Positions 1 through 9,603 of a DNA stretch of 64,000 nucleotides are shown piece by piece. A program made the position numbers and the translations under genes. The stretch is from NCBI RefSeq assembly GCF_000421465.1, contig NZ_ATXB01000001.1, forward strand, positions 186,001 to 250,000, read 5' to 3'. Position 1 is the stretch's first letter, and each line of letters opens with the position of its first letter. Source of the stretch: Methylohalobius crimeensis 10Ki (GTDB lineage: Bacteria; Pseudomonadota; Gammaproteobacteria; Methylococcales; Methylothermaceae). The notes beneath the pieces are model-generated. The model had not been told where the DNA came from, ran no database searches, and saw only the letters and a program-made list of their open reading frames with translations.

Positions 1-237
1 ATCGGTTTGGATGAAATCGTTTGAACTTGCATCAAGGCACACGGCCACCATGCAAGGCGCGATTCCTTCCGTTCCTAACTTCGGGTAAACCTCGATAAAG
101 TCTCCATCCTCTGGAAAGTTAATCGCTGCCCCTCTCGAATAGCCATTACGTTGTAGCGCGTCCTCAAAATCCATTAGGTCCGGCCAGTCAAAAACGGATT
201 CCGCCCATTCGCCTCGGCTGTACTTCCAAATATCCAT
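1..237 (-). CDS. hypothetical protein, 3' end outside window
   Basis: An open frame starts at an ATG at 237 and runs off the left edge without a stop, so only the first 79 residues are visible. It begins MDIWKYSRGEWAESVFDW and is acidic and aromatic-rich. A good ribosome binding site (AGGAGA, minus strand, about 243-248) sits upstream of the ATG, which supports real translation. I recognise no family. It follows the 97-residue gene on the same strand with a gap of about 26 bases, so the two are probably co-transcribed accessory genes of the integrative element. Confidence 0.55.
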   Translation of the reverse strand, partial: MDIWKYSRGEWAESVFDWPDLMDFEDALQRNGYSRGAAINFPEDGDFIEVYPKLGTEGIAPCMVAVCLDASSNDFIQTD

Positions 238-263
238 GTATATCTCCTCACTAATGCGTTAAT

Positions 264-557
264 TCAAAGCCACAATCCAATGTCTCGTAGTGCTTCCCAA
301 TGCTCCATATCTAGCCGGTCAATCGCTGTAAAGCCACTTCGCTTGGCAGTCTCTCCCCACGGTGCTTGGTCTATGTTTCTCTCGTACCGAAGCACAACTG
401 GGTCGATTTGGATGCGGTCATGCAAAACGCACCCTTGCTGAAACCCGCGGCGGTACGATGTCTCAGAAACTCTTGCAACGAACTTAATCAGAGATTTCTT
501 CTCGCGCTCGGTCAGCTTGTCGCTCAGGTCAAGAGTTATTCCTTTTGAGATACTCAT
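264..557 (-). CDS. hypothetical protein (97 aa) of the integrative element
   Basis: A 97-residue frame opens with an ATG at 557 preceded by an AATGAGGTG-like ribosome binding site. The N-terminal half is charged and helical (LTEREKKSLIKFVARVSETSYRR); the rest contains aromatic and acidic stretches. There is no membrane segment or signal peptide. I do not recognise the family. It lies downstream of the DUF927 gene and upstream of the truncated edge gene, all on the minus strand, so it is probably cargo of the element. Confidence 0.5.
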   Translation of the reverse strand: MSISKGITLDLSDKLTEREKKSLIKFVARVSETSYRRGFQQGCVLHDRIQIDPVVLRYERNIDQAPWGETAKRSGFTAIDRLDMEHWEALRDIGLWL

Positions 558-594
558 TTTTCACCTCATTTCATTTTCAATTCATCGTTTAATG

Positions 595-801
595 GTGTGG
601 ACAGTGTGGACGGTGTGGACATCCCGCATGATTCCTTGACTCCCACTGTCCACAGTTAGAAAACCATAGTGTGGACAGTGTGGACGGCTCAATGGATCAC
701 CTCCCCACTGTCCACACTGTCCACACTCTCGGTTTCGTTGTGTGGACGGCCTCTATCCCGCATGGACTCTTGCCTGTCCACACCGTCCACACTGTCCACA
801 C
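595..801. repeat. array of GTGTGGAC/GTCCACAC octamers (block A)
   Basis: About eleven exact copies of GTGTGGAC or its complement GTCCACAC lie between 595 and 801. Within clusters they are spaced 9 bases start to start (for example 595, 604, 613; 776, 785, 794), in both orientations. The block is homologous to block B (884-1089), in which the corresponding positions carry GTCCGGAC instead. A degenerate third copy of the unit is visible at about 595-656. The array could be iteron-like protein-binding DNA near the replication genes, or simply the product of tandem gene-end duplication. Confidence 0.8.
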
Positions 802-850
802 TTAAAACTGACGCCTTGATACTGAAAACGGGGATGCGCTCGTTGTTCAC
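689..850 (-). pseudogene. duplicated C-terminal tail of the DUF927 gene
   Basis: Read on the minus strand, this stretch encodes ERIPVFSIKASVLSVDSVDG and continues RQESMRDRGRPHNETESVDS. It is colinear with the last roughly 60 residues of the neighbouring DUF927 protein (ERIPVFSIKSSILSPDSPDG, then RQEYMRGSGRPDNETASPDS). It has no start codon or upstream domain of its own that looks functional, so it is best read as a leftover second copy of the 3' end. The SVD tripeptides replace the SPD tripeptides throughout, which reflects the octamer difference between blocks A and B. Confidence 0.7.
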
Positions 851-883
851 TCTATTCGCCTCATTAGAATCAATTAAAAAACT

Positions 884-1089
884 GTCCGGACAGTCCGGAC
901 GGGTTGGACAGACCGCATAAACTCTGCCTTCCCGTCGTCCGGACACCTGATTTTAAAGTCCGGACATGTCCGGACGGTTGATTTCTCCTGCATCGCTGTC
1001 CGGACTGTCCGGACTAGCGGTTTCGTTGTCCGGACGGCCTGAACCCCGCATGTACTCTTGCCTGTCCGTGCCGTCCGGACTGTCCGGAC
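884..1089. repeat. array of palindromic GTCCGGAC octamers (block B)
   Basis: Ten exact copies of the self-complementary octamer GTCCGGAC occur, starting at 884, 893, 937, 958, 968, 998, 1007, 1028, 1073 and 1082. Adjacent copies are often 9 or 10 bases apart. The right part lies inside the last codons of the DUF927 gene, where the repeats encode SPD tripeptides; the left part lies beyond its stop. An array of identical short palindromes next to primase and helicase genes looks like an iteron-type origin or a regulatory site, but this function is inferred. Confidence 0.8.
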
Positions 1090-2800
1090 TTAAAATAGAA
1101 GATTTGATACTGAAAACGGGGATTCGCTCGCCGTTAACTCTGATTCGGCTCTTATATTCGCGCCCCTGACGATGCAGCAGCCGCATTTCCATCAGCTCCT
1201 TGAGCGCTGCATTTTGATTGGCCCCGTTAAGCGCCTCCTTGAATGACTCCGGCGTAAAGTGATAAAAACCATCCCGAACCCATCCGGCCCTGTCTCGCGG
1301 TATATCGCCATCAAGACGCTCAAATCTGGAATCATTTTTAAGGATGAAATCCTGTATGGCGACGATGCCCCGCTCGGCGTCGGTGCTGGATGACTGACTA
1401 CCACGCCAAACCTCGTAAGCAAAACGTGCAGCATTGAGTGCATCGCCCTCATTCCAGGGCAATAGCCCAATTCGGATTGCCAATTCGCCAGCGCAGGCAG
1501 CCAGCGCAAACCGCTTTCGGACGCGGCCTGCTTCCGGTGTCCTGGCTTCGCCGACCATGCTTTCCTCAAATGCCTTCCAGTGGTTGAGCATCATTTGCGT
1601 CCCATGCTCAATGAAAAGCGGCCCAACGTGGCCAAAATGACTCGCGCAAATATGCTTGATCGTGTCGGCTTCATCGGCGTCACGAAAAAGCGTAACTTGA
1701 TCTATCGGTATATCCGCCAACCTGACGCGTTGCCCGCCACGTACTTTTTTGCCGCCTTCCTCGGCGTACTCTGACGCTGCCAGCTCGCCAGCACTCAGCA
1801 CCATGACGCGCCATGATTTCGATTTTCTCAGCCCGCCACTAGTGGTGGAGCGCTTCCGCCCGGTCCCCGCCATGATGCGGTAGATCGTCCGTCCGAAATC
1901 TTTGGTATCGCTTTCGCCGATTTCATCGACGCAAAGCGGCAAATCGTTGAAGCATTCGGCGGTTGCCTCTAGCGCGTTATCGGTGGCATTCCATCGCTGG
2001 ATGTAAGCCGTGCTCCCCCCGGCCATCTGCGGATCCGAGCCATCGCCCCAAACACTTGCTGCAGCTTGCAGCAGGGTGGTCTTGCCGTGCGAAGTCTGCC
2101 CATGGAAGTGAAAACCGCCCGCCTCAATCCCGGTGATAAACCTCATCGGCGCGGCTAGCGAAGCGGAGACGGAAAAAACGATGAGCGCCGAAGCATTTTT
2201 CAGGGCGGCTTGCCATTCATCAATCGACCCTTTCGATCCGAAGGCATCGGCGGCCGTCTGGATGTCCGGCGGCTGATAGATAATTTTTTCGCCAACCGGG
2301 TTGTTGATGGTCCCAGAAGGCAAAACAAACGCTCGGCCATTCCAGCCTGTGACGGTTGCTGATGTGAGTCTCTTTTTGGTGGCGAATGACGCCAGATATT
2401 GGAGAAGCTTACGTTCCTTTCCGGGTACAATTGGAAGCCCGCCGACTGACAGTAGTTGCGCCATCTCGTTGCCGCTTGAATGCAGCAGATTTGCCGACAT
2501 CGCCATTTCGTGACGATGATTGTCGTGATCCAACCAAACAACAAGCCGCCCCCACGATTCTTTCTTACCGTCTCGGGATAAGGCATCTACCCAAACAGGC
2601 TTGTGTGCGATTTTTACCCATTCGGTTTTATCGTCCTTCCCTTCAACCGAGTAAGCCACGCCTCGATCCGTGCATTGCCATCCGTCAGGGGATGGGTACT
2701 TGGTTTTCCGCATGGCGGATTTTTTTCGGCCTTGCGCTTTCTCTAGCCGCTTTCTGGCCAATTCGTCTAATCTTTCCTTTTCGTCCAAATCATTTGTCAT
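953..2800 (-). CDS. DUF927 domain protein, helicase-like P-loop ATPase
   Basis: This 615-residue protein has a charged N-terminus, then a DUF927-type region, a Walker A-like loop (GQTSHGKTTLL, around residue 235) and a Walker B-like strand (LPLCVDEIGE, around 285). DUF927 proteins usually pair with CHC2 zinc-finger primase proteins in phages and satellites, where they are thought to act as the replicative helicase. The start ATG at 2800 overlaps the end of the CHC2 gene by 11 bases, indicating translational coupling. The last roughly 60 residues are a low-complexity SPD-rich tail encoded by the GTCCGGAC array, and a second copy of that tail lies just downstream. The family is clear; helicase activity is inferred. 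Confidence 0.85.
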   Translation of the reverse strand: MTNDLDEKERLDELARKRLEKAQGRKKSAMRKTKYPSPDGWQCTDRGVAYSVEGKDDKTEWVKIAHKPVWVDALSRDGKKESWGRLVVWLDHDNHRHEMAMSANLLHSSGNEMAQLLSVGGLPIVPGKERKLLQYLASFATKKRLTSATVTGWNGRAFVLPSGTINNPVGEKIIYQPPDIQTAADAFGSKGSIDEWQAALKNASALIVFSVSASLAAPMRFITGIEAGGFHFHGQTSHGKTTLLQAAASVWGDGSDPQMAGGSTAYIQRWNATDNALEATAECFNDLPLCVDEIGESDTKDFGRTIYRIMAGTGRKRSTTSGGLRKSKSWRVMVLSAGELAASEYAEEGGKKVRGGQRVRLADIPIDQVTLFRDADEADTIKHICASHFGHVGPLFIEHGTQMMLNHWKAFEESMVGEARTPEAGRVRKRFALAACAGELAIRIGLLPWNEGDALNAARFAYEVWRGSQSSSTDAERGIVAIQDFILKNDSRFERLDGDIPRDRAGWVRDGFYHFTPESFKEALNGANQNAALKELMEMRLLHRQGREYKSRIRVNGERIPVFSIKSSILSPDSPDGTDRQEYMRGSGRPDNETASPDSPDSDAGEINRPDMSGL

Positions 2801-3245
2801 TTTGGCGGACTCCTGAAATTTTCATCGCGTTCTCGATTCGTGATACAGCCACCTCGATACGATCTAGGTCGTGGTCGCTGAACTCAGCGCCTTGCAAGAG
2901 CGTTTCCCCGGCGGCCATCAGCACCAGCGATTCGTAATGCAGCGCACGTAGCACATCGGATGCGTAGAACGCCGGTTTGATTCGCTTGGCCGGTTTTCCC
3001 GGCTCGGGTGGTCGTGGCGGGAACAAATCCCGGAGTTCCAACCCAAGCGCTTGGGTGATCTCGTGGATGCTGCATTCTGCGAAGCACTTCAATAAAATCC
3101 GCCCATCGTCGCCTTCGCGGATCGAAAGTGACGGCGATTTGTCATCATGGGCTGGGCATTTTGCGGTCCATCGGCCTTGGCCGGTCCGCTTCACTTTTTC
3201 GAGTCGCGGTAGGATCGTTTCGGCGGGGGATGTGGTGATGCTCAT
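2790..3245 (-). CDS. CHC2 zinc-finger (primase-type) protein
   Basis: I start this gene at the ATG at 3245 because a strong GGAGGTGGG ribosome binding site precedes it and because the start overlaps the upstream stop as ATGA. The protein has 151 residues. Residues about 25-75 form a CHC2-type DNA primase zinc-binding domain (RWTAKCPAHDDKSPSLSI, then LLKCFAECSIHEI), with the Cys/His ligands visible. There is no TOPRIM catalytic domain, so it is probably the zinc-binding half of a split primase working with the DUF927 protein. The C-terminal part is helical and unassigned. Confidence 0.8.
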   Translation of the reverse strand: MSITTSPAETILPRLEKVKRTGQGRWTAKCPAHDDKSPSLSIREGDDGRILLKCFAECSIHEITQALGLELRDLFPPRPPEPGKPAKRIKPAFYASDVLRALHYESLVLMAAGETLLQGAEFSDHDLDRIEVAVSRIENAMKISGVRQNDK

Positions 3246-3457
3246 ACGCCCACCTCCAGCATCCGCAACGATGCCCGAATCGACGCCCGAAGGTGCTCGT
3301 ATGCGCGACACGTCCGACAAGGCGCGCCGTCCTGAAAACACGAGCAGGCTGGAAGAACTTTTTCGTAAGTGGCTGATTTAGAAGGGTTTTTTTCTTGCGA
3401 TTTACGCAGAAAAACCTTGCGGCGGTGGTCGCCGTTGTGTAGAATAGTGTCTAGCAT
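3242..3457 (-). CDS. small cysteine-containing protein coupled to the primase gene
   Basis: A 71-residue frame ends in a TGA that overlaps the ATG of the CHC2 gene (ATGA, 3242-3245). That argues it is translated and coupled. The protein is basic in its first third and has a compact cysteine cluster, CSCFQDGAPCRTC, that could bind zinc. I do not recognise the family. A small zinc-ribbon DNA- or RNA-binding accessory of the replication module is plausible but unproven. Confidence 0.5.
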   Translation of the reverse strand: MLDTILHNGDHRRKVFLRKSQEKNPSKSATYEKVLPACSCFQDGAPCRTCRAYEHLRASIRASLRMLEVGV

Positions 3458-3522
3458 TCGCTAGCTCCTATGCATGCTATGCAACGCGAGTCTTGGCGAA
3501 GAGTGGCGTTGCGATTAAGATT

Positions 3523-3544
3523 GCCCCGGCCAATGAGCCGGGGC
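3523..3544. terminator. GC-rich hairpin between element genes
   Basis: GCCCCGGC and GCCGGGGC form a perfect 8-bp stem with a 6-base loop in the gap between the 98-residue gene (ends 3562) and the 71-residue gene (starts 3457). There is no strong T-run on the minus strand. A second, weaker inverted repeat (GCAACGC / GCGTTGC, 3481-3512) lies beside it. It could be an attenuator or processing site splitting the upstream small-gene operon from the primase operon. Confidence 0.45.
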
Positions 3545-3561
3545 ATTCGCGCTTCTGGCGT

Positions 3562-3858
3562 TCAGCTATCTGCGTTCAGCACGACCTTCAGAGCATCGAC
3601 ATTTGCGCCCACGAGTTCGCCCAATCCGGTAATCGTCCGACCATCCACCAGTTCGGTTTCGTCGGCGGCAATCCCGGCAGCAGTGGCAAGCCTGCCGATG
3701 GTCTCCAGTCGCCGTAAGATCGTCTCGACGGCGTCCATCCGCCCGACGTCTCCGTCGATGTCATGCGTTCCGATTAGCGCTCGCAGCAATTCCCGCGCGC
3801 GGTCTCGCTTGACGCGGTTTCGCAGGTTTTCCAAGTCTTCATCGTATGCACGGTTCAT
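3562..3858 (-). CDS. hypothetical protein (98 aa) of the element
   Basis: The start is placed at the ATG at 3858 because GGGAGGTG lies just upstream and because it overlaps the stop of the preceding gene as ATGA. The protein begins MNRAYDEDLENLRNRVKRDR, a highly charged helix that may form a coiled coil, and ends with a less charged region (ELVDGRTITGLGELVGANVD). There is no recognisable family, membrane segment or signal. It is the last gene of a coupled run starting with the AlpA-like gene. Confidence 0.55.
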   Translation of the reverse strand: MNRAYDEDLENLRNRVKRDRARELLRALIGTHDIDGDVGRMDAVETILRRLETIGRLATAAGIAADETELVDGRTITGLGELVGANVDALKVVLNADS

Positions 3859-4367
3859 CGGGCACCTCCCTGCTGTAACTCGCCCTGCAAGTGCTCGCAA
3901 AGCGCCCGCCGGGCAAGCAAAAGCAAACCGCATGCAGCACGGGCAGCGCCACGATCAAACGCATGGTCGCGTAGATCGTCCTCTGCCGCTTGGACGGCAA
4001 GAATGCATCGCTTCAAGCAATCAAGGCGCTGCAGGTATGTATCCGAATAGACGGGGGTGGATTCGCCTGAAAAGGCGCGTTCGATTGTGGATGTGGTTTT
4101 GGTGGGCATGATTGCCTCCATACATTCAGAGTTTTTCGGTCGGCCACCATCAATAGGGTGGCCGGGTGTCACTCTCGGCTGCATGGAGCCGCCGCCATTA
4201 TTCCCGCCGAAACGGTCTTGTATTCCTGGCTGTCCACCCGACCATAAAAACTGGCCGGTAAAATTTCCGGTAGGCAAGAAAAAACCGCCTGACGGGGCGG
4301 GGTATCCGCCATGCATTTTGAGAGTGTATTCAGAATAACCCCGCGCGCCGTCGAAGGTCAAGGGCAT
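3855..4367 (-). CDS. Ash-like leader ORF fused to a small helical domain
   Basis: The frame from the ATG at 4367 gives 170 residues. Its first part reads GARGYSEYTLKMHGGYPAPS and then a glycine/proline-rich stretch with SGGQPGIQ and GHPIDGG. This resembles the Ash-family ORFs found in the immunity/leader region of P4-like prophages. The ATG overlaps the upstream stop as TGATG, which favours translation. An alternative start at 4109 (MPTKTTSTIERAF), with its own GGAGGC site, would give only the 84-residue helical C-terminal part. It is possible that the first 250 bases act mainly as RNA and only the shorter product is made. The Ash assignment is by motif memory and moderately certain. Confidence 0.55.
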   Translation of the reverse strand: MPLTFDGARGYSEYTLKMHGGYPAPSGGFFLPTGNFTGQFLWSGGQPGIQDRFGGNNGGGSMQPRVTPGHPIDGGRPKNSECMEAIMPTKTTSTIERAFSGESTPVYSDTYLQRLDCLKRCILAVQAAEDDLRDHAFDRGAARAACGLLLLARRALCEHLQGELQQGGAR

Positions 4368-4582
4368 CAAGCAGCCACACCACGCCCGGCCAGCATATCC
4401 TCCTTAAGCTTTAAAGCCTGGTCCTTTGGCCACAACAGACGCCCCGTCGGCAGTTTGACGGGGCGCAAACCATAATAGCTGCCCTCAGTACAAAGCCGCC
4501 CTCGAACACTTGTGGGCTTGACGTGGAAAAGTTTCGCCAATTCGTCAGTAGTTATTTCGTTAATATCCAAAGCAAACTCCAT
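4367..4582 (-). CDS. small helix-turn-helix protein, AlpA/excisionase-like
   Basis: The protein has about 71 residues from the ATG at 4582 (a GTG at 4588 is also possible). It contains ITTDELAKLFHVKPTSVRGR followed by a wing-like stretch (YYGLRPVKLPTGRLLWP). This fits the small MerR/AlpA-type DNA-binding proteins that sit near integrases in P4-like elements and act as excisionase or transcription activator. No clear ribosome binding site is visible. It is the first gene of the minus-strand run and faces the DnaA-box intergenic region, a sensible place for a regulator. Confidence 0.65.
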   Translation of the reverse strand: MEFALDINEITTDELAKLFHVKPTSVRGRLCTEGSYYGLRPVKLPTGRLLWPKDQALKLKEDMLAGRGVAA

Positions 4583-4710
4583 AAACACGTTTTAATTCGA
4601 TACGCGAATTATTAAATCACAAGACTTTTCTGCCTGACACCATACATGGATACCATCAAAAACCGGACATAAAAACGCCGAAAGCCTGAATAAATGCGGC
4701 CTCCAGCGTT

Positions 4711-4788
4711 TTGTCCACAGACTTATCCACTAAAAATGTGGATAACTTTGCATAATTATCTTTTGTGGTGTGAATAATCTGTGGATAA
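4711..4788. promoter_or_regulatory. cluster of DnaA boxes, candidate origin or control region
   Basis: Three exact DnaA boxes of the TTATNCACA type occur on the minus strand at 4737-4745, 4769-4777 and 4780-4788. Near-matches are TTATCCACT at 4723-4731 and TTGTCCACA at 4711-4719, both on the plus strand. That is five boxes in 78 bases. The adjacent 4790-4960 sequence is strongly AT-rich. The region lies in the roughly 365-base gene-free gap between the AlpA-like gene and the integrase, inside an element with its own primase and helicase genes. An origin of replication, or DnaA-dependent regulation of the element, would explain it. I see no convincing gene in the gap. Confidence 0.7.
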
Positions 4789-4948
4789 CTTTTTGGTTAG
4801 TTATATGTTGTGATGTCTTGGTTTGTGTTGCGATAAGTTGAAATCATCAAAAGCAGGTATTGCGATACCTTGTTTTACGTTGTTTTTTATTGCAGCCGGG
4901 GGTGATTATCTTTCGTTTCCTATTAAGAAAAAAATTGTTTCCTATAAG

Positions 4949-6274
4949 TTAATTGTCGTCTTTACCGACAACTCGCAAGCCGGTTCCCCCGTCCTGAGGG
5001 TGCTCAATTCCGGCCTGCTCTAAAATCCATCCCTCGATTCTAGAATGCCAAAGTCGTAGCAGGTCCAGCGGTCGGCGGCGGTAATGTTTTTCGGCCAAGG
5101 CCGACGGTTTGTGTCCCATGATTTGCGCCACCACGCCCACGGGTGCTTCGGTCCATTCCGCCAGCGTCCCAAAGCTCCGCCTAAGTCCGTGCAGCGTCAG
5201 ATGTGGAAGCCCCGCCCTTGCAAGCGCCTTGGAATGAGGGTGGTTCGGGGTGGCAAGCTTGCCGCTCGATGACGTGCCGGAATAGAAAACAAACTCGTTA
5301 CGACGCGGCAAAGCATCCAGGACTTGCGCCAAGTAAGGCGTCAATGGGACGATCCGCTCGCCATCGATTTTGTCCTTCAGCGTCATCGATCGCCATTGGA
5401 AATCCACGTCCGCCCAACGCAAGCTCGCCATTTCCTCCCGCCGCGCCCCGGTCAGCAGCAGCGCTTGCAAGTAGGCGCTAACGGACGGATGGGGAATTTG
5501 CCGAACGGCATCGAACCATGTCCTAAGCTGTTCGCGCTGAAGGCAATCATCTTTTGTGCGGGGCTTCGGTACGGCTCGGCGAACATTCCCATTAAGCAAG
5601 GCGGCCACGTCCACAAGACCGCGATAGTCCGGGTGGGCGGTCGTCCAGTTCAGAAATGCCCGTAAAAGCCGAAATGCCCCAGCGGTGGAAGTCGGCCTAG
5701 TCCGTTTCTCTTGGTTCAGCCATTGCATCAACCCCTCCGGCGTCAGGTCTGCTAGCGCCTCGCCCCTCAGCGCCCACAATGGCCCGGCTTTCGTTTTCTG
5801 GCTGGTGCGCTCCCTGGGTTGTCCGGGGGGCTGCATCATCTTCTCGTGATCTCTGAGGGTTCGCGCGCTCCAGTCCTTTCGGCGGGCCTCGATGTAGGCG
5901 TCCCAAGCCTCGCCTAGCGTAACTTCCGCCCTCTCCTCCTCCTGGCGCTGGACCTCGGCTTCCAGTTCGCGCCGTCTCTTCTCTTCGCCGGGGTGAATGC
6001 CTGCATCCACCAGTGTCCGTAATCGCCGTGCCTCGGCGCGTGCCTGGGCAATGTCGAAAGCGTCCTGGCGGCCTATCCTGTAGCGTCCTGATTTGCCGCG
6101 AAGCGAGAATTTGAAGACGTAGGCACGCTTGTCATTTTTCGTGACGCGAAGCCCAAGCCCGGACACTTCGGCATCCCATAGGGTAGCCTCAGACTTCCCC
6201 GGCGGACATTTAAATTCGGCCACTCGACCGGCGGTGAATTTGACTCGATTGGTGTTTTTTCGACCGTTAGGCAT
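4949..6274 (-). CDS. int: P4-type tyrosine recombinase (integrase)
   Basis: The start is placed at the ATG at 6274 (MPNGRKNTNRVKFTAGRVAE), where the family normally begins; the open frame extends upstream only through a TTG. The 441-residue protein has an N-terminal DUF4102 arm-binding domain (about 1-90), a core-binding SAM-like domain (about 115-220) and a C-terminal catalytic domain. Catalytic residues are visible: Arg in TGARREEMASLRW, Lys in TLKDKIDGERI, HGLR, GHKPSA, and the nucleophile Tyr in AEKHYRRRP. It catalyses integration and excision of the element, usually at a tRNA or gene end, but no tRNA is visible here. It is transcribed away from the CRISPR locus, so the element edge is probably near 6.3-6.4 kb. 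Confidence 0.92.
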   Translation of the reverse strand: MPNGRKNTNRVKFTAGRVAEFKCPPGKSEATLWDAEVSGLGLRVTKNDKRAYVFKFSLRGKSGRYRIGRQDAFDIAQARAEARRLRTLVDAGIHPGEEKRRRELEAEVQRQEEERAEVTLGEAWDAYIEARRKDWSARTLRDHEKMMQPPGQPRERTSQKTKAGPLWALRGEALADLTPEGLMQWLNQEKRTRPTSTAGAFRLLRAFLNWTTAHPDYRGLVDVAALLNGNVRRAVPKPRTKDDCLQREQLRTWFDAVRQIPHPSVSAYLQALLLTGARREEMASLRWADVDFQWRSMTLKDKIDGERIVPLTPYLAQVLDALPRRNEFVFYSGTSSSGKLATPNHPHSKALARAGLPHLTLHGLRRSFGTLAEWTEAPVGVVAQIMGHKPSALAEKHYRRRPLDLLRLWHSRIEGWILEQAGIEHPQDGGTGLRVVGKDDN

Positions 6275-6413
6275 GAATCCGTCATCCGTACCAGTTTTCT
6301 TGGTCCGGCTATGGTACGGCAAAACGCAAATTTTTAGGTGTTTTTTAGCATTCAAACATATTATCAGGATATTCTGATATATGGCCTAAATGACTGACTT
6401 TACAAGGAGAAAT

Positions 6414-7043
6414 TCAGTAAAACCGGGGGGTGTGGAGGATTGCTTGGAATGAATAAATGATTCGTTGATCGGGGGTGGGATAAAAAAATTGGGGATGGGA
6501 TTCGAACGGCGGCGAGACCAGCACGTGCGACAGGCGATCCTGCCGGCGTCCGTAAAGGGACAGGGCGTAGCCCAGATAGTAGCCCATGGTCTTGCGTCCG
6601 CCGGCGAGGGAAATATGCAGCGCGGCTTGCTTGTCTTCGGTCAGTCGGCGGACGGTGTCGACGACGAAATCGGCCGTTTGTTCGTTGTCCTTGGGGGTGC
6701 GAATGTCGGCGGCCGGCTGACCTTCCGCGTCGGGAATGGTCAGAATCCGGTCCGAATCGAAGGCGATGTGCGGCAGGTCGTATTCGCGGCATAGGCGATG
6801 AAACCAACCCGGCTCATCGGATAGGAGATGAAGCCGTGCATGCTCGGCGCCGGTGCGGGTGGTGATCAGGATGATCTCGGTGGGAATGAAAGCCGGTTCG
6901 CCTAGCACAGCGAGCGCGTACAGGGTTTCGGTCACTACTTGGGGCGACAAGCCGGTGACCGCTAGCAGGATTCGGCGTGGGTAGGTGTACGGTTGTTCCG
7001 GGTCAAAATTGATTGTTGGCTTATTATTCTGCAATTCCTTCAT
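6414..7043 (-). CDS. CARF-domain CRISPR accessory protein, NE0113 (Csm6-like ring nuclease) family
   Basis: The start at 7043 (MKELQNNKPTINF) has a GGAAG ribosome binding site. The 209-residue protein contains RRILLAVTGLSPQVVTETLY near the N-terminus and the ligand-loop motif SLAGGRKTMGYYLGYALSL near residue 165, both hallmarks of the CARF fold in the Cas_NE0113 family. Such proteins sense cyclic oligoadenylate made by type III effectors, and some degrade it. No HEPN motif is visible, so this is a sensor or ring nuclease rather than a full Csm6 RNase. After FFYP the tail (IIYSFQAILHTPRFY) is short and may be an altered end created by the neighbouring integration. It lies downstream of the array on the same strand. 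Confidence 0.8.
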   Translation of the reverse strand: MKELQNNKPTINFDPEQPYTYPRRILLAVTGLSPQVVTETLYALAVLGEPAFIPTEIILITTRTGAEHARLHLLSDEPGWFHRLCREYDLPHIAFDSDRILTIPDAEGQPAADIRTPKDNEQTADFVVDTVRRLTEDKQAALHISLAGGRKTMGYYLGYALSLYGRRQDRLSHVLVSPPFESHPQFFYPTPDQRIIYSFQAILHTPRFY

Positions 7044-7268
7044 GCCACTTCCATTGGGACGCTCTGCCCTAAGGTTAGATGCATTCAGTCGATTTTTCCA
7101 ATCCGGCAAGCTTGCAGAACGGGAGTAATCTTGCTGATTGGCTGACGCGGATCGTTGCCCAGGGTTGGATGTGGTCCCACGGGAGCTACCCTGCTGGAAG
7201 GGGATATGTGGCGGTTATTTTGGGTTGTCGGAATAGGTTATACGTTAGATCGGCTGAGCCGGTAATTG

Positions 7269-8501
7269 GTCTTAATCCCTTTTTCATCAGGTCAATTTCT
7301 CGAGAGCCAATAAAGCACGGAAGAAATACCTACGCGAACGTCTTAATCCCTTTTTCATCAGGTCAATTTCTCGAGCCAGAAAGGGGCGTTGGTTATCGTC
7401 GGCGGACGTGTCTTAATCCCTTTTTCATCAGGTCAATTTCTCGAGCTGACTGTTATTGTCAATTACCAGAGTAGGAGAAGTCTTAATCCCTTTTTCATCA
7501 GGTCAATTTCTCGAGCATGCCGACCTGTCCGGTGCCAATCTGACCTATGCGTCTTAATCCCTTTTTCATCAGGTCAATTTCTCGAGTGACAATGATGGTT
7601 AAGTATGCGCTGTTACATGGGGTCTTAATCCCTTTTTCATCAGGTCAATTTCTCGAGGAAACTTGGCCACAGTGAGTGGCGTGCAGAAATAGTCTTAATC
7701 CCTTTTTCATCAGGTCAATTTCTCGAGCTAGCAGATCTTTAACAATTGGGATAGCGTCGTCGTCTTAATCCCTTTTTCATCAGGTCAATTTCTCGAGGCT
7801 GGTAAAGCACCTCCATGCGTCCGGATTGGACGTCTTAATCCCTTTTTCATCAGGTCAATTTCTCGAGGCAGCGAGCTTAAGAAAGCGGTCGGCACGTTTA
7901 GGTCTTAATCCCTTTTTCATCAGGTCAATTTCTCGAGAGGAGAAAGAATCAACCGTGAGCGACCTGAACAAGGTCTTAATCCCTTTTTCATCAGGTCAAT
8001 TTCTCGAGGGATCTCGTGCGCCTAGATAAATCTCCAAACCAAGGTCTTAATCCCTTTTTCATCAGGTCAATTTCTCGAGGAGACAGCGGCCATTGGGCCG
8101 CTAGCAGATCTTTGTCTTAATCCCTTTTTCATCAGGTCAATTTCTCGAGAAAGAAGACGCCTTTGGGGCGTTTTTAGATTACGAGTCTTAATCCCTTTTT
8201 CATCAGGTCAATTTCTCGAGAAACATCTCTGCGGAAACAGTCCATTCAACTCTGTCTTAATCCCTTTTTCATCAGGTCAATTTCTCGAGTGTTGCACATA
8301 TCGATGACGGCTTTCGGCTCCAATGTCTTAATCCCTTTTTCATCAGGTCAATTTCTCGAGCGGCATAAACCAAGAGGAGAGAGAGATGAAGCAAGTCTTA
8401 ATCCCTTTTTCATCAGGTCAATTTCTCGAGAGGGGCGTTGGTTATCGTCGGCGGACGTGCGCCAAGTCTTAATCCCTTTTTCATCAGGTCAATTTCTCGA
8501 G
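7269..8501 (-). CRISPR. CRISPR array, 18 repeats and 17 spacers
   Basis: Eighteen apparently identical 36-base repeats begin at 7269, 7340, 7410, 7480, 7551, 7622, 7692, 7762, 7832, 7902, 7973, 8044, 8114, 8185, 8254, 8325, 8395 and 8466. Spacers are 33-35 bases. On the minus strand the repeat begins CTCGAGAAATTGACC and ends ATTAAGAC, an 8-base end like the 5' handle of type I/III crRNAs. That gives a minus-strand reading with the leader at the right, just after cas6. No repeat is visibly degenerate at either end. Spacer 2 (7376-7409) and spacer 17 (8431-8465) share 28 bases; spacer 7 (7728-7761) and spacer 12 (8080-8113) share 13 bases. Confidence 0.98.
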
Positions 8502-8610
8502 AGCACCCCCTAATTTTCTTTTTAAAGATCAACGCCTTACAAGGACCCTTGAAGAAATTTTTTGACGCCAAAAAGTTGACGCTCATCAATTGCCTCCATC
8601 GGCTTAAAAT
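8502..8610 (-). promoter_or_regulatory. probable CRISPR leader
   Basis: The 109 bases between the cas6 stop and the first repeat (in minus-strand order) are AT-rich, with runs such as AAAAAATTT and TTTAAAAAGAAAA. This fits a leader that carries the array promoter and integration signals. A short minus-strand frame, MEAIDERQLFGVKKFLQGSL, fits within it. It follows the cas6 stop closely, but I cannot tell whether it is translated. The opposite flank (7110-7268) is not AT-rich and looks like the distal end. Confidence 0.6.
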
Positions 8611-9603
8611 CTAGCATCCGATGTCTGTTTCTACAAGCGGGTTTCGGGAGTATTTGTGCTCGGACAGCGGTTCCACTTGGTATTTTCCCAACCCCATCAC
8701 CGTACCCTTGCCCACGTGTAACCATTGGCCGGCGCTTAGCCAGGGCCAGAATGGAGCCAGGGCTTGTCCCTCCAGAATCACTTGTCCGAGCAGTCCCCCC
8801 ATGTGCATTTCGGTTTTTTGGCGGTTGGAGTAGCGTTTCCAATCGAACCAGCGGAGTTCGGTGCGAAGCGGGGTGACGGATTTTGCTTGGTCGATTAATG
8901 TACGAAAATCGATTTCCAAGGGCGTATCGCCGTGAAAATAACAGAGGAGTGACAGGCGCCGAAGCAGGGCGGCGAGCAGGCCGCGGAAGCTGAAGTTTTC
9001 GACCCCCATGAGCCGATCCCGATAGCGGACTCGGAGCGGGGTATGGAAGGTCAGCACGCATTGTCCGTTGGGCGCGGGCGTTGGCGGCGGCGTTTGCGGG
9101 GACAGGGCGGTCAGGGGGTTGCCGCGGCGGTGGATTTCTTGCCATTCCGCGTTCGGTGTTGCTTGCTGTTCGACGCTTTCCAACTCGAAACGCCCCTTGC
9201 CGCCGCCGATGCCCAAGTCGCCGATCTTTTGCCAGGCATGAACGAGGTAGGGCAGACGGGCGTTGGCGTGGCCGATGAGGGTCAGATCCACGGAAAACGG
9301 TTCGCCCGCTTGATAACGCCCGCTGTTGGTGGCCTCGGGATGGATGATGAAGGGGTGGGGGGCGGCGGGGTATTTGCGCAGGATGTCGGCGTTCTCCGGC
9401 GGCGGGGTTTCGAAGATGTAGCTGTAGGCGCAGCTCCGCCACAACAGGCAGTCGCGGCAGTCGGGTTGACGGGTGACGCAGACCGACTTTTTCAGCGCGT
9501 GGCCGAAAGCGCCGCGCCAGGTGGAGCCGGCATAGCGGGGAAAGCTCAGTGGCGTCAGGGCGCGGCAGTGGAAACGGTAGTGGGCAAGAGGCAGCGGTAA
9601 CAT
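8611..9603 (-). CDS. cas6: CRISPR pre-crRNA processing endoribonuclease Cas6
   Basis: This 330-residue RAMP protein starts at an ATG at 9603 with an AGGAG site. Family marks include the N-terminal SFPRYAGSTWRGAFGHAL, a cysteine cluster typical of this Cas6 group (CVTRQPDCRDCLLWRSC), and the C-terminal glycine-rich GKGTVMGLGKYQV. Cas6 cleaves repeat RNA to give crRNAs with an 8-base 5' handle, and the ATTAAGAC end of the repeat fits this. The gene sits immediately upstream of the leader and array on the same strand. No cas10, csm/cmr, cas1 or cas2 gene is present within the window, so it must work with an effector encoded elsewhere, or the locus is incomplete. Confidence 0.9.
   Translation of the reverse strand: MLPLPLAHYRFHCRALTPLSFPRYAGSTWRGAFGHALKKSVCVTRQPDCRDCLLWRSCAYSYIFETPPPENADILRKYPAAPHPFIIHPEATNSGRYQAGEPFSVDLTLIGHANARLPYLVHAWQKIGDLGIGGGKGRFELESVEQQATPNAEWQEIHRRGNPLTALSPQTPPPTPAPNGQCVLTFHTPLRVRYRDRLMGVENFSFRGLLAALLRRLSLLCYFHGDTPLEIDFRTLIDQAKSVTPLRTELRWFDWKRYSNRQKTEMHMGGLLGQVILEGQALAPFWPWLSAGQWLHVGKGTVMGLGKYQVEPLSEHKYSRNPLVETDIGC

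What the first reader, a model, noticed from the sequence alone, without database searches (positions are those of the whole stretch)
595..1089. Duplicated gene tail with a wholesale switch of its octamer array
The 3' end of the DUF927 gene (block B) and a downstream copy (block A) are colinear, yet nearly every GTCCGGAC in B is replaced by GTGTGGAC/GTCCACAC at the matching place in A, turning SPD codons into SVD. A third, degenerate unit lies at 595-656. Random drift would not change all copies in the same way, so some process (gene conversion, or recognition by different cognate proteins) must act on the octamers. Next to a primase and helicase they could be iterons of an element origin, with older versions pushed outward by tail exchange.
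Basis: partly seen in the sequence, partly recalled or inferred. Interest (0 to 1): 0.75.

Follow-up and report, generated by a model that had tools for sequence, protein, structure and literature searches.

The report
Helicase gene's origin with swappable address
The repeated 8-letter words are very probably docking sites of a mobile element's own DNA-copying start point, and comparison with relatives suggests that the start point and the tip of the protein that reads it change 'address' together and sometimes leave the old address behind.

Summary
Two colinear units of 12 octamers each (offset 288-290 bp at all 12 places) lie at the 3' end of a DUF927 helicase gene: GTCCGGAC in B, GTGTGGAC/GTCCACAC in A. 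The "third unit" is A's distal arm. Best reading: each unit is a replication origin of the SaPIbov1-Rep/Cch kind, its octamers bound by the helicase's C-terminal winged helix. Of 110 related loci, 52 carry a 7-mer at least 6 times within 400 bp at the gene's 3' end; 0 of 103 gene-body controls do. Octamers differ between loci but share one layout (triple, reversed single, pair, often mirrored); 45 of 47 run-single-run triplets fit, and the annotated P4 origin has the same order. Among close relatives, octamer change follows change in two beta-hairpins of the winged helix (partial r 0.63), not the rest of the domain or the helicase core; an unbiased scan ranks the beta-wing first. A second element (Mariprofundaceae) independently carries a tandem copy: winged helix plus complete origin with another octamer. 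So octamers do switch wholesale, apparently with their reader domain. Origin activity is inferred, not shown. New variant of a known kind.

The parts
953..2800 (-). DUF927 helicase gene (615 aa), the presumed self-loading replication initiator; its 3' end runs through 8 of the 12 B sites (7 exact, 1 degenerate)
   Evidence: Pfam DUF927 E 1.5e-64; profile of homologues matches SaPIbov1 Rep 8tch E 2.4e-49 and Cch 5dgk E 1e-39; model pLDDT 93.3, Foldseek top hits 5dgk and 8tch
1052..1393 (-). stretch modelled as the C-terminal winged helix (HTH_56-like), presumed octamer-binding domain
   Evidence: model mbb4b6a7eeb88; VIA-align Z 12.1 to 8tch_A 450-556, Z 10.2/10.1 to TcpK, Z 9.2 to Cch; Pfam HTH_56 reported at E<=1 for 25 of 56 homologues, window's own match E 0.035, below cut-off
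1130..1183 (-). beta-wing of the winged helix (residues about 540-557), best candidate for the specificity determinant
   Evidence: of the 10-residue windows scanned over core and winged helix, 544-553 has the highest partial correlation with octamer change, r 0.56
1256..1291 (-). first beta-hairpin (residues about 504-515), second candidate determinant
   Evidence: differs between the two L055 cassettes; only a weak peak, r 0.23,
884..1089 (.). origin unit B: 12 GTCCGGAC sites (884, 893, 902d, 937, 958, 968, 998, 1007, 1028, 1064d, 1073, 1082; d = degenerate), layout 3-1-2-2-1-3
595..801 (.). origin unit A: 12 GTGTGGAC/GTCCACAC sites (595, 604, 613, 648d, 669, 678, 710, 719, 740, 776, 785, 794), a dyad with reversed single sites
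802..860 (-). remnant of a second DUF927 gene tail that belongs to unit A
   Evidence: the genome search match to residues 553-606, 73% identity, genome C1:186701-186856 = window 701-856; alignments
2790..3341 (-). CHC2 zinc-finger primase-like gene
   Evidence: Pfam PF01807 E 0.00068, below cut-off; PHROG 6088 DNA primase E 6.5e-15
4367..4588 (-). small helix-turn-helix gene (regulator or excisionase-like)
   Evidence: Pfam HTH_17 E 0.004, below cut-off
4949..6355 (-). tyrosine integrase of the element
   Evidence: Pfam Phage_integrase E 8.9e-17, Arm-DNA-bind_3 E 2e-13

Best explanation
Units A and B are each a complete iteron replication origin of an integrative element. The element's DUF927 helicase is a relative of SaPIbov1 Rep and SCCmec Cch. 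It binds the octamers with its C-terminal winged helix, mainly through the beta-wing and a first hairpin, much as TcpK binds its tandem 9-nt boxes. A half-origin has six sites in a fixed order (three in a row, one reversed, two in a row); I infer that one hexamer sits on each half and two on the mirrored full origin. Order and about 9-bp spacing are conserved while the octamer letters are free to change, provided that the wing and the sites change together. The winged helix and its origin thus behave as a specificity cassette at the gene's tail. In the window, B is fused to the live gene; A is the origin, with a stub of gene tail, of a displaced or captured relative. Shown by computation: arrays, layout, fold, wing-octamer association, a second independent tandem cassette. 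Inferred: origin activity, hexamer stoichiometry, direct wing contact, order of events.
For: Arrays: 52 of 110 homologous loci have a 7-mer >=6x within 400 bp at the gene's 3' end, 0 of 103 gene-body controls; >=5x: 62 of 110 against 6 of 103. Layout: in 61 arrays, 216 of 218 neighbouring sites <=11 bp apart share orientation (177 of 218 at exactly 9 bp); 45 of 47 run-single-run triplets have like runs and a reversed single (1/4 expected). P4 record: 8-bp type 1 repeats at the ori in the order <<< > <<. Fold: 8tch, TcpK and Cch. Literature: SaPI/PICI origins lie directly 3' of rep and consist of iterons; the Rep C-terminal domain recognises them (PMC7581432, PMC6092414; passages and one section); TcpK reads tandem boxes by its beta-wing (PMC6137059; passages and section 11). 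Cassette: L055 gene+origin (CGGTGGAC) followed by a 148-aa winged-helix ORF+origin (GTGTGGAA); protein differences concentrate in parts of the winged helix, 0 of 60 nt over residues 81-100. Association: octamer distance with hairpin distance, given rest of domain and core, r 0.63, permutation p 0.0005, 66 pairs; rest -0.35, core 0.04. L137/L132: core distance 0.03, winged helix 0.25, one octamer letter changed across a colinear array (GGGGAAC, GGCAAC).
Against: A plain test over all pairs did not separate winged helix from core (partial r 0.12 against 0.15; mutual information no higher in winged-helix than core columns, p 0.51). In the all-pairs version of the hairpin test the core keeps an effect too (hairpins 0.15, p 0.002; core 0.13, p 0.03). 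The hairpin limits were set after seeing L055, though; one L055 patch (model 25-31) lies outside them. In one search some core windows reach r 0.47, so clade structure is not fully removed. In L137/L132 hairpin enrichment was not significant (p 0.19). 48 of 110 loci show no array at the cut-off. The published PICI origins flank an AT-rich stretch; the centres of A and B are not AT-rich (AT 0.42 and 0.50 against 0.46 around; flanks 560-594 and 802-883 are, 0.71 and 0.61). Cumulative GC skew of four small replicons has its maximum, not its minimum, within 340 bp of the gene's stop codon, confounded with gene orientation; two of the four have a clear array. P4 alpha shows no profile match to this winged helix, and P4's gaps around the single are the other way round (22 bp on the triple side, 43 on the pair side). 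L027 and L096 are oriented the other way.
Confidence: 0.82

Rival explanations
1. The octamers matter as protein: SPD/SVD repeats form a functional, repetitive C-terminal tail of the helicase, and the DNA pattern follows.
For: 8 of 12 B sites are inside the gene and read SPDSPD; L010 reads TVETVET. In 8 of 61 loci most sites lie inside the reading frame.
Against: In 44 of 61 loci with an array all sites of the leading word lie after the stop codon, in 53 of 61 most do; unit A is outside the helicase gene; mirrored sites encode other peptides; the orientation layout has no meaning for a peptide; tails differ (SPD, TVE, SGE).
Confidence: 0.04
2. Unit A is not a displaced origin but a working second origin or decoy, kept for another initiator (a co-resident or helper element) or for copy-number control.
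For: A's octamers are 95/96 uniform although its spacers match B at only 77/134 columns, so A has not visibly decayed. L055 also keeps a complete second origin, with an intact winged-helix ORF above the HTH_56 cut-off. P4 uses two separate iteron regions, ori and crr.
Against: Recent capture explains intactness as well. The co-resident element L010 has a different octamer (CGGTGGAA), so it would not serve A. P4's two regions share one octamer.
Confidence: 0.3
3. The octamer switch is neutral concerted evolution: gene conversion homogenises the sites regardless of the protein.
For: Identical stretches between the two L055 cassettes (0 of 60 nt at residues 81-100) point to recombination in the tail.
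Against: Sites are separated by diverged spacers and stand in both orientations; octamer change goes with hairpin change.
Confidence: 0.08
4. The arrays are regulatory operators for a repressor or partition protein rather than an origin.
For: Winged helices often regulate transcription (general knowledge); TcpK, a close fold match, acts at oriT rather than at a replication origin.
Against: Position 3' of a SaPI-Rep-like helicase, where a PICI origin was tested (PMC6092414); the same order of sites in the annotated P4 ori.
Confidence: 0.08

Closest known systems
SaPI/PICI Rep-ori modules (SaPIbov1 Rep 8tch; SCCmec Cch 5dgk; PICI origins in PMC6092414, passages and section 6 read)
   Same: DUF927-type helicase with HTH_56-like C-terminal domain (SaPIbov1 Rep, Cch); iterons directly 3' of the gene; two iteron sets; rep plus ori shown to drive replication for PICI EcCICFT073
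   Different: Here sites lie partly inside the coding sequence, two full units with different octamers stand in tandem, the centres are not AT-rich, and octamer letters vary between relatives under one layout. I did not see that layout or a wing-octamer link in the passages read.
Satellite P4 ori/crr type 1 repeats (NC_001609)
   Same: 8-bp sites (TGTTCACC = GGTGAACA), at the ori in the order 3-1-2 with the single reversed
   Different: alpha is not of this winged-helix family by profile; gaps around the single are the other way round; crr has another order; ori and crr lie apart and share one octamer
TcpK and its boxes in pCW3 oriT (PMC6137059, passages and section 11 read)
   Same: Same winged-helix fold (Z about 10); tandem 9-nt boxes; the bound stretch contains CAGGGAAC, like the GAGGGAAC octamers of several loci
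   Different: Transfer origin, free-standing dimer, two boxes only, 12-bp period
PLE RepA iterons and Odn nuclease of ICP1 (PMC8263062, PMC7145576; passages read)
   Same: Satellite origins diversify under attack directed at iterons; replication modules are exchanged
   Different: RepA_N family, about 30-bp iterons, no helicase fusion

Membership tests
SaPIbov1 Rep / Cch (DUF927 self-loading initiator helicases) | DUF927 AAA+ helicase core | tested here: met
SaPIbov1 Rep / Cch (DUF927 self-loading initiator helicases) | C-terminal HTH_56 winged-helix domain | tested here: met
   By fold (Z 12.1 and 9.2); by Pfam the window's own match is below cut-off (E 0.035), HTH_56 reported for 25 of 56 homologues at E<=1
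SaPIbov1 Rep / Cch (DUF927 self-loading initiator helicases) | Iterons directly 3' of the gene | tested here: met
   Array present and over-represented; that it is an origin is not testable here
SaPIbov1 Rep / Cch (DUF927 self-loading initiator helicases) | Hexamer, helicase activity, specific iteron binding | not testable with these tools
   needs protein
Phage satellite / PICI | Integrase, AlpA-like regulator, primase-rep-ori order | tested here: inconclusive
   Integrase and primase/helicase found; regulator HTH_17 below cut-off
Phage satellite / PICI | Two iteron sets flanking an AT-rich stretch | tested here: inconclusive
   Mirrored half-units present; centres AT 0.42 and 0.50, not AT-rich, but flanks are
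Phage satellite / PICI | Helper-phage dependence, capsid or packaging genes | tested here: inconclusive
   Ten ORFs downstream searched in Pfam: only an SSB is clear, no capsid gene; induction not testable
P4-type replicon | 8-bp type 1 repeats in 3-1-2 order with reversed single | tested here: met
   gap lengths differ
P4-type replicon | alpha-family primase-helicase initiator | tested here: not met
   No profile match of the winged helix to alpha; PDB profile search gives Rep/Cch instead

The most novel reading that the evidence does not exclude
DUF927/HTH_56 elements use a general 'addressed origin': a fixed layout of six octamers per half-origin with freely evolving letters, read by the beta-wing through a learnable code, and carried as a tail cassette (winged helix + origin) that is captured, stacked and swapped so that related elements stay mutually orthogonal or escape agents that target their iterons.
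Probability: 0.35. Interest if true: 0.82.

Novelty: new variant of a known kind. Interest (0 to 1): 0.64.

Why it matters
Initiator-origin specificity usually has to be worked out one replicon at a time. Here a readable layout, about 40 natural octamer variants among 58 loci and close pairs that differ in wing and octamer make the recognition code, and how an initiator and 12 sites can change together, directly testable. It would also give a set of candidate orthogonal origins and a way to find origins of many unstudied elements.

Tried and rejected
Close relatives by the search for related loci with the single window protein: none in genome contigs or viral contigs; with alignment A3, 3 loci in genome contigs, none in viral contigs. 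Plain Mantel and mutual-information tests: no separation of winged helix from core; only the hairpin split did. GC skew of four small replicons: no support for origin polarity. P4 alpha OBD: no profile link, and I saw no P4 structure among the rows shown; that absence excludes nothing. Tandem-cassette hunt, limited to the stretch held beyond each stop codon (mostly 1 to 1.6 kb): second words with >=5 copies were listed for L026, L052, L060, L125 and the window. L052 and L125 had no real first array, L060's second word is not regularly spaced, so the window and L026/L055 (one contig, two ids) remain; a tail copy by tblastn supports both (its other rows are mostly overruns past a stop or split genes). 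L108 and L101 repeat the same octamer. Of six short winged-helix ORFs fetched, L190 and L187 are followed by five exact copies of a 7-mer, the other four by none at that level. Rfam on 1-9000 and tRNA scan of the window: nothing.

Rows dropped before counts: 6 duplicate loci and L122 (101 bp downstream) of 117; 7 of 110 loci had no gene body long enough for a control. My notebook says 53 loci with >=6 copies; the count is 52. L010/L011 and L111/L112 are near-identical pairs and count twice; L011 and L112 were left out. In some searches, 58 loci with octamers oriented by hand: of the 62 array loci, L011, L027, L029, L083, L096, L100, L101, L102, L108, L112 and L133 were left out as copies, split genes, irregular or ambiguous, and 7 loci with 4 copies were added; 57 had enough core for, 56 were used (L036 left out as a twin of L037).

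Full report
What is there. On the minus strand the window holds a tyrosine integrase (4949-6355), a small HTH gene (4367-4588), a CHC2 primase-like gene (2790-3341) and a DUF927 helicase gene (953-2800). The gene's end and the DNA beyond it carry 10 exact GTCCGGAC in 884-1089 and 11 exact GTGTGGAC (either strand) in 595-801, where about one of each is expected in the whole 64 kb. Counting three degenerate sites, both blocks have 12 sites at the same places, offset by 288-290 bp. Blocks A and B are each a whole unit: three sites 9 bp apart, one site, two sites, then the mirror image. In A the word has a direction, and the order is +++ - ++ | -- + ---, a dyad in which the single sites are reversed. 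The 'third unit' at 595-656 is the outer arm of A.

Not peculiar to this window. Two more DUF927 loci of the same genome (near-identical to each other) and one of the same genus have arrays of other words, GGTGGAA and GTGGGGAA, in the same arrangement. I collected 117 loci from partly overlapping searches of 10 family, 398 phylum, 311 order and 369 class genomes plus named records. After removing 6 duplicates and one short locus, 52 of 110 have a 7-mer at least six times within 400 bp at or after the gene's 3' end, against 0 of 103 gene bodies; at five copies 62 of 110 against 6 of 103. Neighbouring loci excepted, the words differ: GTGTTAC, GTGGGAC, GGGGACA, GGCAAC, GGTTACA, CCGTGAC and others; I count 40 distinct fully defined octamers among 58 loci. 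Oriented by the layout, most end in AC.

The layout is the conserved thing. In 61 arrays, 216 of 218 neighbouring sites within 11 bp point the same way, 177 of the 218 spaced 9 bp. Of 47 run-single-run triplets, 45 have like runs and a reversed single. The loci are related, so the binomial p (5e-25) is not a true probability, but the sample spans many genera of one phylum. Where a pair faces a triple, the gap on the pair side is mostly 19-25 bp and on the triple side mostly 29-35 or 52-58 bp, roughly whole helical turns; L027, L052, L063, L090 and L121 deviate. Copy numbers of the leading 7-mer: 5 (10 loci), 6 (16), 7 (5), 8 (7), 9 (4), 10 (3), 11 (2), 12 (8), 13 (6), 14 (1), with humps near 6 and 12-13 that fit half and full units. 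The published P4 record marks its ori type 1 repeats as 8-bp sites in the order <<< > <<, but with the longer gap on the pair side, and P4 alpha shows no profile match to this winged helix.

What reads the octamers. A profile of 55 sequences (window and homologues) matches SaPIbov1 Rep (8tch) along nearly its whole length and SCCmec Cch (5dgk) from the ATPase part to the C-terminus. The predicted structure (pLDDT 93) has the same best matches. The C-terminal domain alone aligns with SaPIbov1 Rep 450-556 (Z 12.1), with TcpK (Z 10.2 free, 10.1 on DNA) and with Cch (Z 9.2). According to the passages I read, SaPI Rep recognises, with its C-terminal domain, an iteron origin directly downstream of its gene (PMC7581432). 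PICI origins lie immediately 3' of rep, with two iteron sets flanking an AT-rich stretch, and one was shown to replicate (PMC6092414). In the window the centres of A and B are not AT-rich, the flanks are. TcpK binds tandem 9-nt boxes with its beta-wing in the major groove and with neighbouring loops, hardly with the usual recognition helix (PMC6137059).

A second natural switch. The Mariprofundaceae contig L055 (L026 is the same locus) has a full DUF927 gene and origin (CGGTGGAC), then a 148-aa ORF that repeats the last 140 residues, then a second complete origin with GTGTGGAA. The short ORF passes the HTH_56 cut-off. The two tails differ by 2, 4, 7, 29, 0, 19 and 7 nt per 60. In model numbering, differences fall at 17, 25-31, 39-43, 72-86 and 98 and none in the recognition helix 60-69; hairpins 14 of 32 positions, rest 8 of 69 (the hairpin limits were set after seeing this pair, and the patch 25-31 lies outside them). 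The window shows the same situation with a shorter remnant. Elsewhere, L137 and L132 have helicase cores 3% apart but winged helices 25% apart and a one-letter octamer change (GGGGAAC, GGCAAC) over colinear arrays; L041 and L134 have core 11%, winged helix 32% and two letters.

Test of association. Over all pairs, octamer distance correlates with winged helix and core about equally (partial r 0.12 and 0.15), and mutual information is no higher in winged-helix columns than in core columns; this test was inconclusive. Splitting the domain at the hairpins, over all 1540 pairs hairpins have partial r 0.15 (p 0.002), the rest 0.03 and the core 0.13 (p 0.03). Among 66 pairs with core distance below 0.4, octamer distance follows the hairpins (0.63, permutation p 0.0005) and not the rest of the domain (-0.35) or the core (0.04); with 121 pairs below 0.5 the values are 0.51, -0.25 and 0.08. 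A scan that presupposes no split puts the wing window 544-553 first (r 0.56), with neighbours over 532-557 at 0.40-0.46; core windows reach 0.47 at most, and the first hairpin only 0.23. Three further switched pairs gave hairpin-enrichment p of 0.19, 0.016 and 0.018; five pairs with octamers alike (0 or 1 letter apart) gave 0.32 to 0.94. L010 and L026, from different families, share the wing string RADR.GNRI and the octamer start CGGTGGA.

Mechanism proposed. The helicase binds six octamers of a half-origin through the winged helices of one hexamer, and two hexamers load on a mirrored origin. Shown here by computation: arrays, layout, fold, association. Inferred: origin activity, stoichiometry, direct contact. 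Because reader and sites are neighbours on the DNA, one recombination in the gene tail could exchange both at once and leave the former unit downstream; that would explain a wholesale change that drift would not give. Unit A's octamers are 95/96 uniform while its spacers match B at only 77/134 columns, so A was kept functional until recently or still is. Which of A and B is older is not shown. A possible selective reason, from another satellite system, is escape from nucleases aimed at iterons (PMC8263062); avoiding cross-talk between co-resident elements is another. Neither was tested.

Novelty. The kind of system is known. The searches for a report of the layout, the switching cassettes or a wing-octamer link (in a library of open-licence papers only) listed none that I could recognise from titles, starts of abstracts and the passages read; subscription papers, and so probably the older P4 and SaPI work, are mostly missing from that library, so this is no proof of absence.

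Noticed in passing
window 7079-8513: Repeated translated strings (LIPFSSGQFLE / LNPFFIRSISRE) in several ORFs look like a CRISPR array, with a possible Cas6-like ORF at 8611-9603 (labels from recall, not searched).
   Followed up: no
L009:5408-5800 (genome C1 about 185408-185800): An SSB gene (Pfam E 8e-20) follows the origin region of the element; an ORF with an SSB-like tip, recognised by eye, also lies near the array in L015.
   Followed up: partly
L012, L013, L014 (contigs C3, C4, C5 of the same genome): Short contigs carry the front part of the DUF927 gene of the L010 kind and end inside it; C3 also has an ORF that looks like a transposase (by eye). Probably repeat-broken assembly pieces of several near-identical elements.
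   Followed up: no
L190 (G676:C212): A short winged-helix remnant ORF (91 aa frame) followed by five exact copies of ATGGAAC in a pattern like a half-origin: a possible orphan cassette.
   Followed up: partly
L027, L096: Arrays with the same layout but the word in the opposite direction relative to the gene (TTGTCCA / TTGTCCC first).
   Followed up: no
L101, L108: Several half-origins of one and the same octamer, repeated or facing outward, some far downstream of the stop codon.
   Followed up: no
PMC6137059, TcpK site: The minimal TcpK site contains CAGGGAAC, the octamer core of a whole group of loci here (L061, L070, L075, L080, L111).
   Followed up: no
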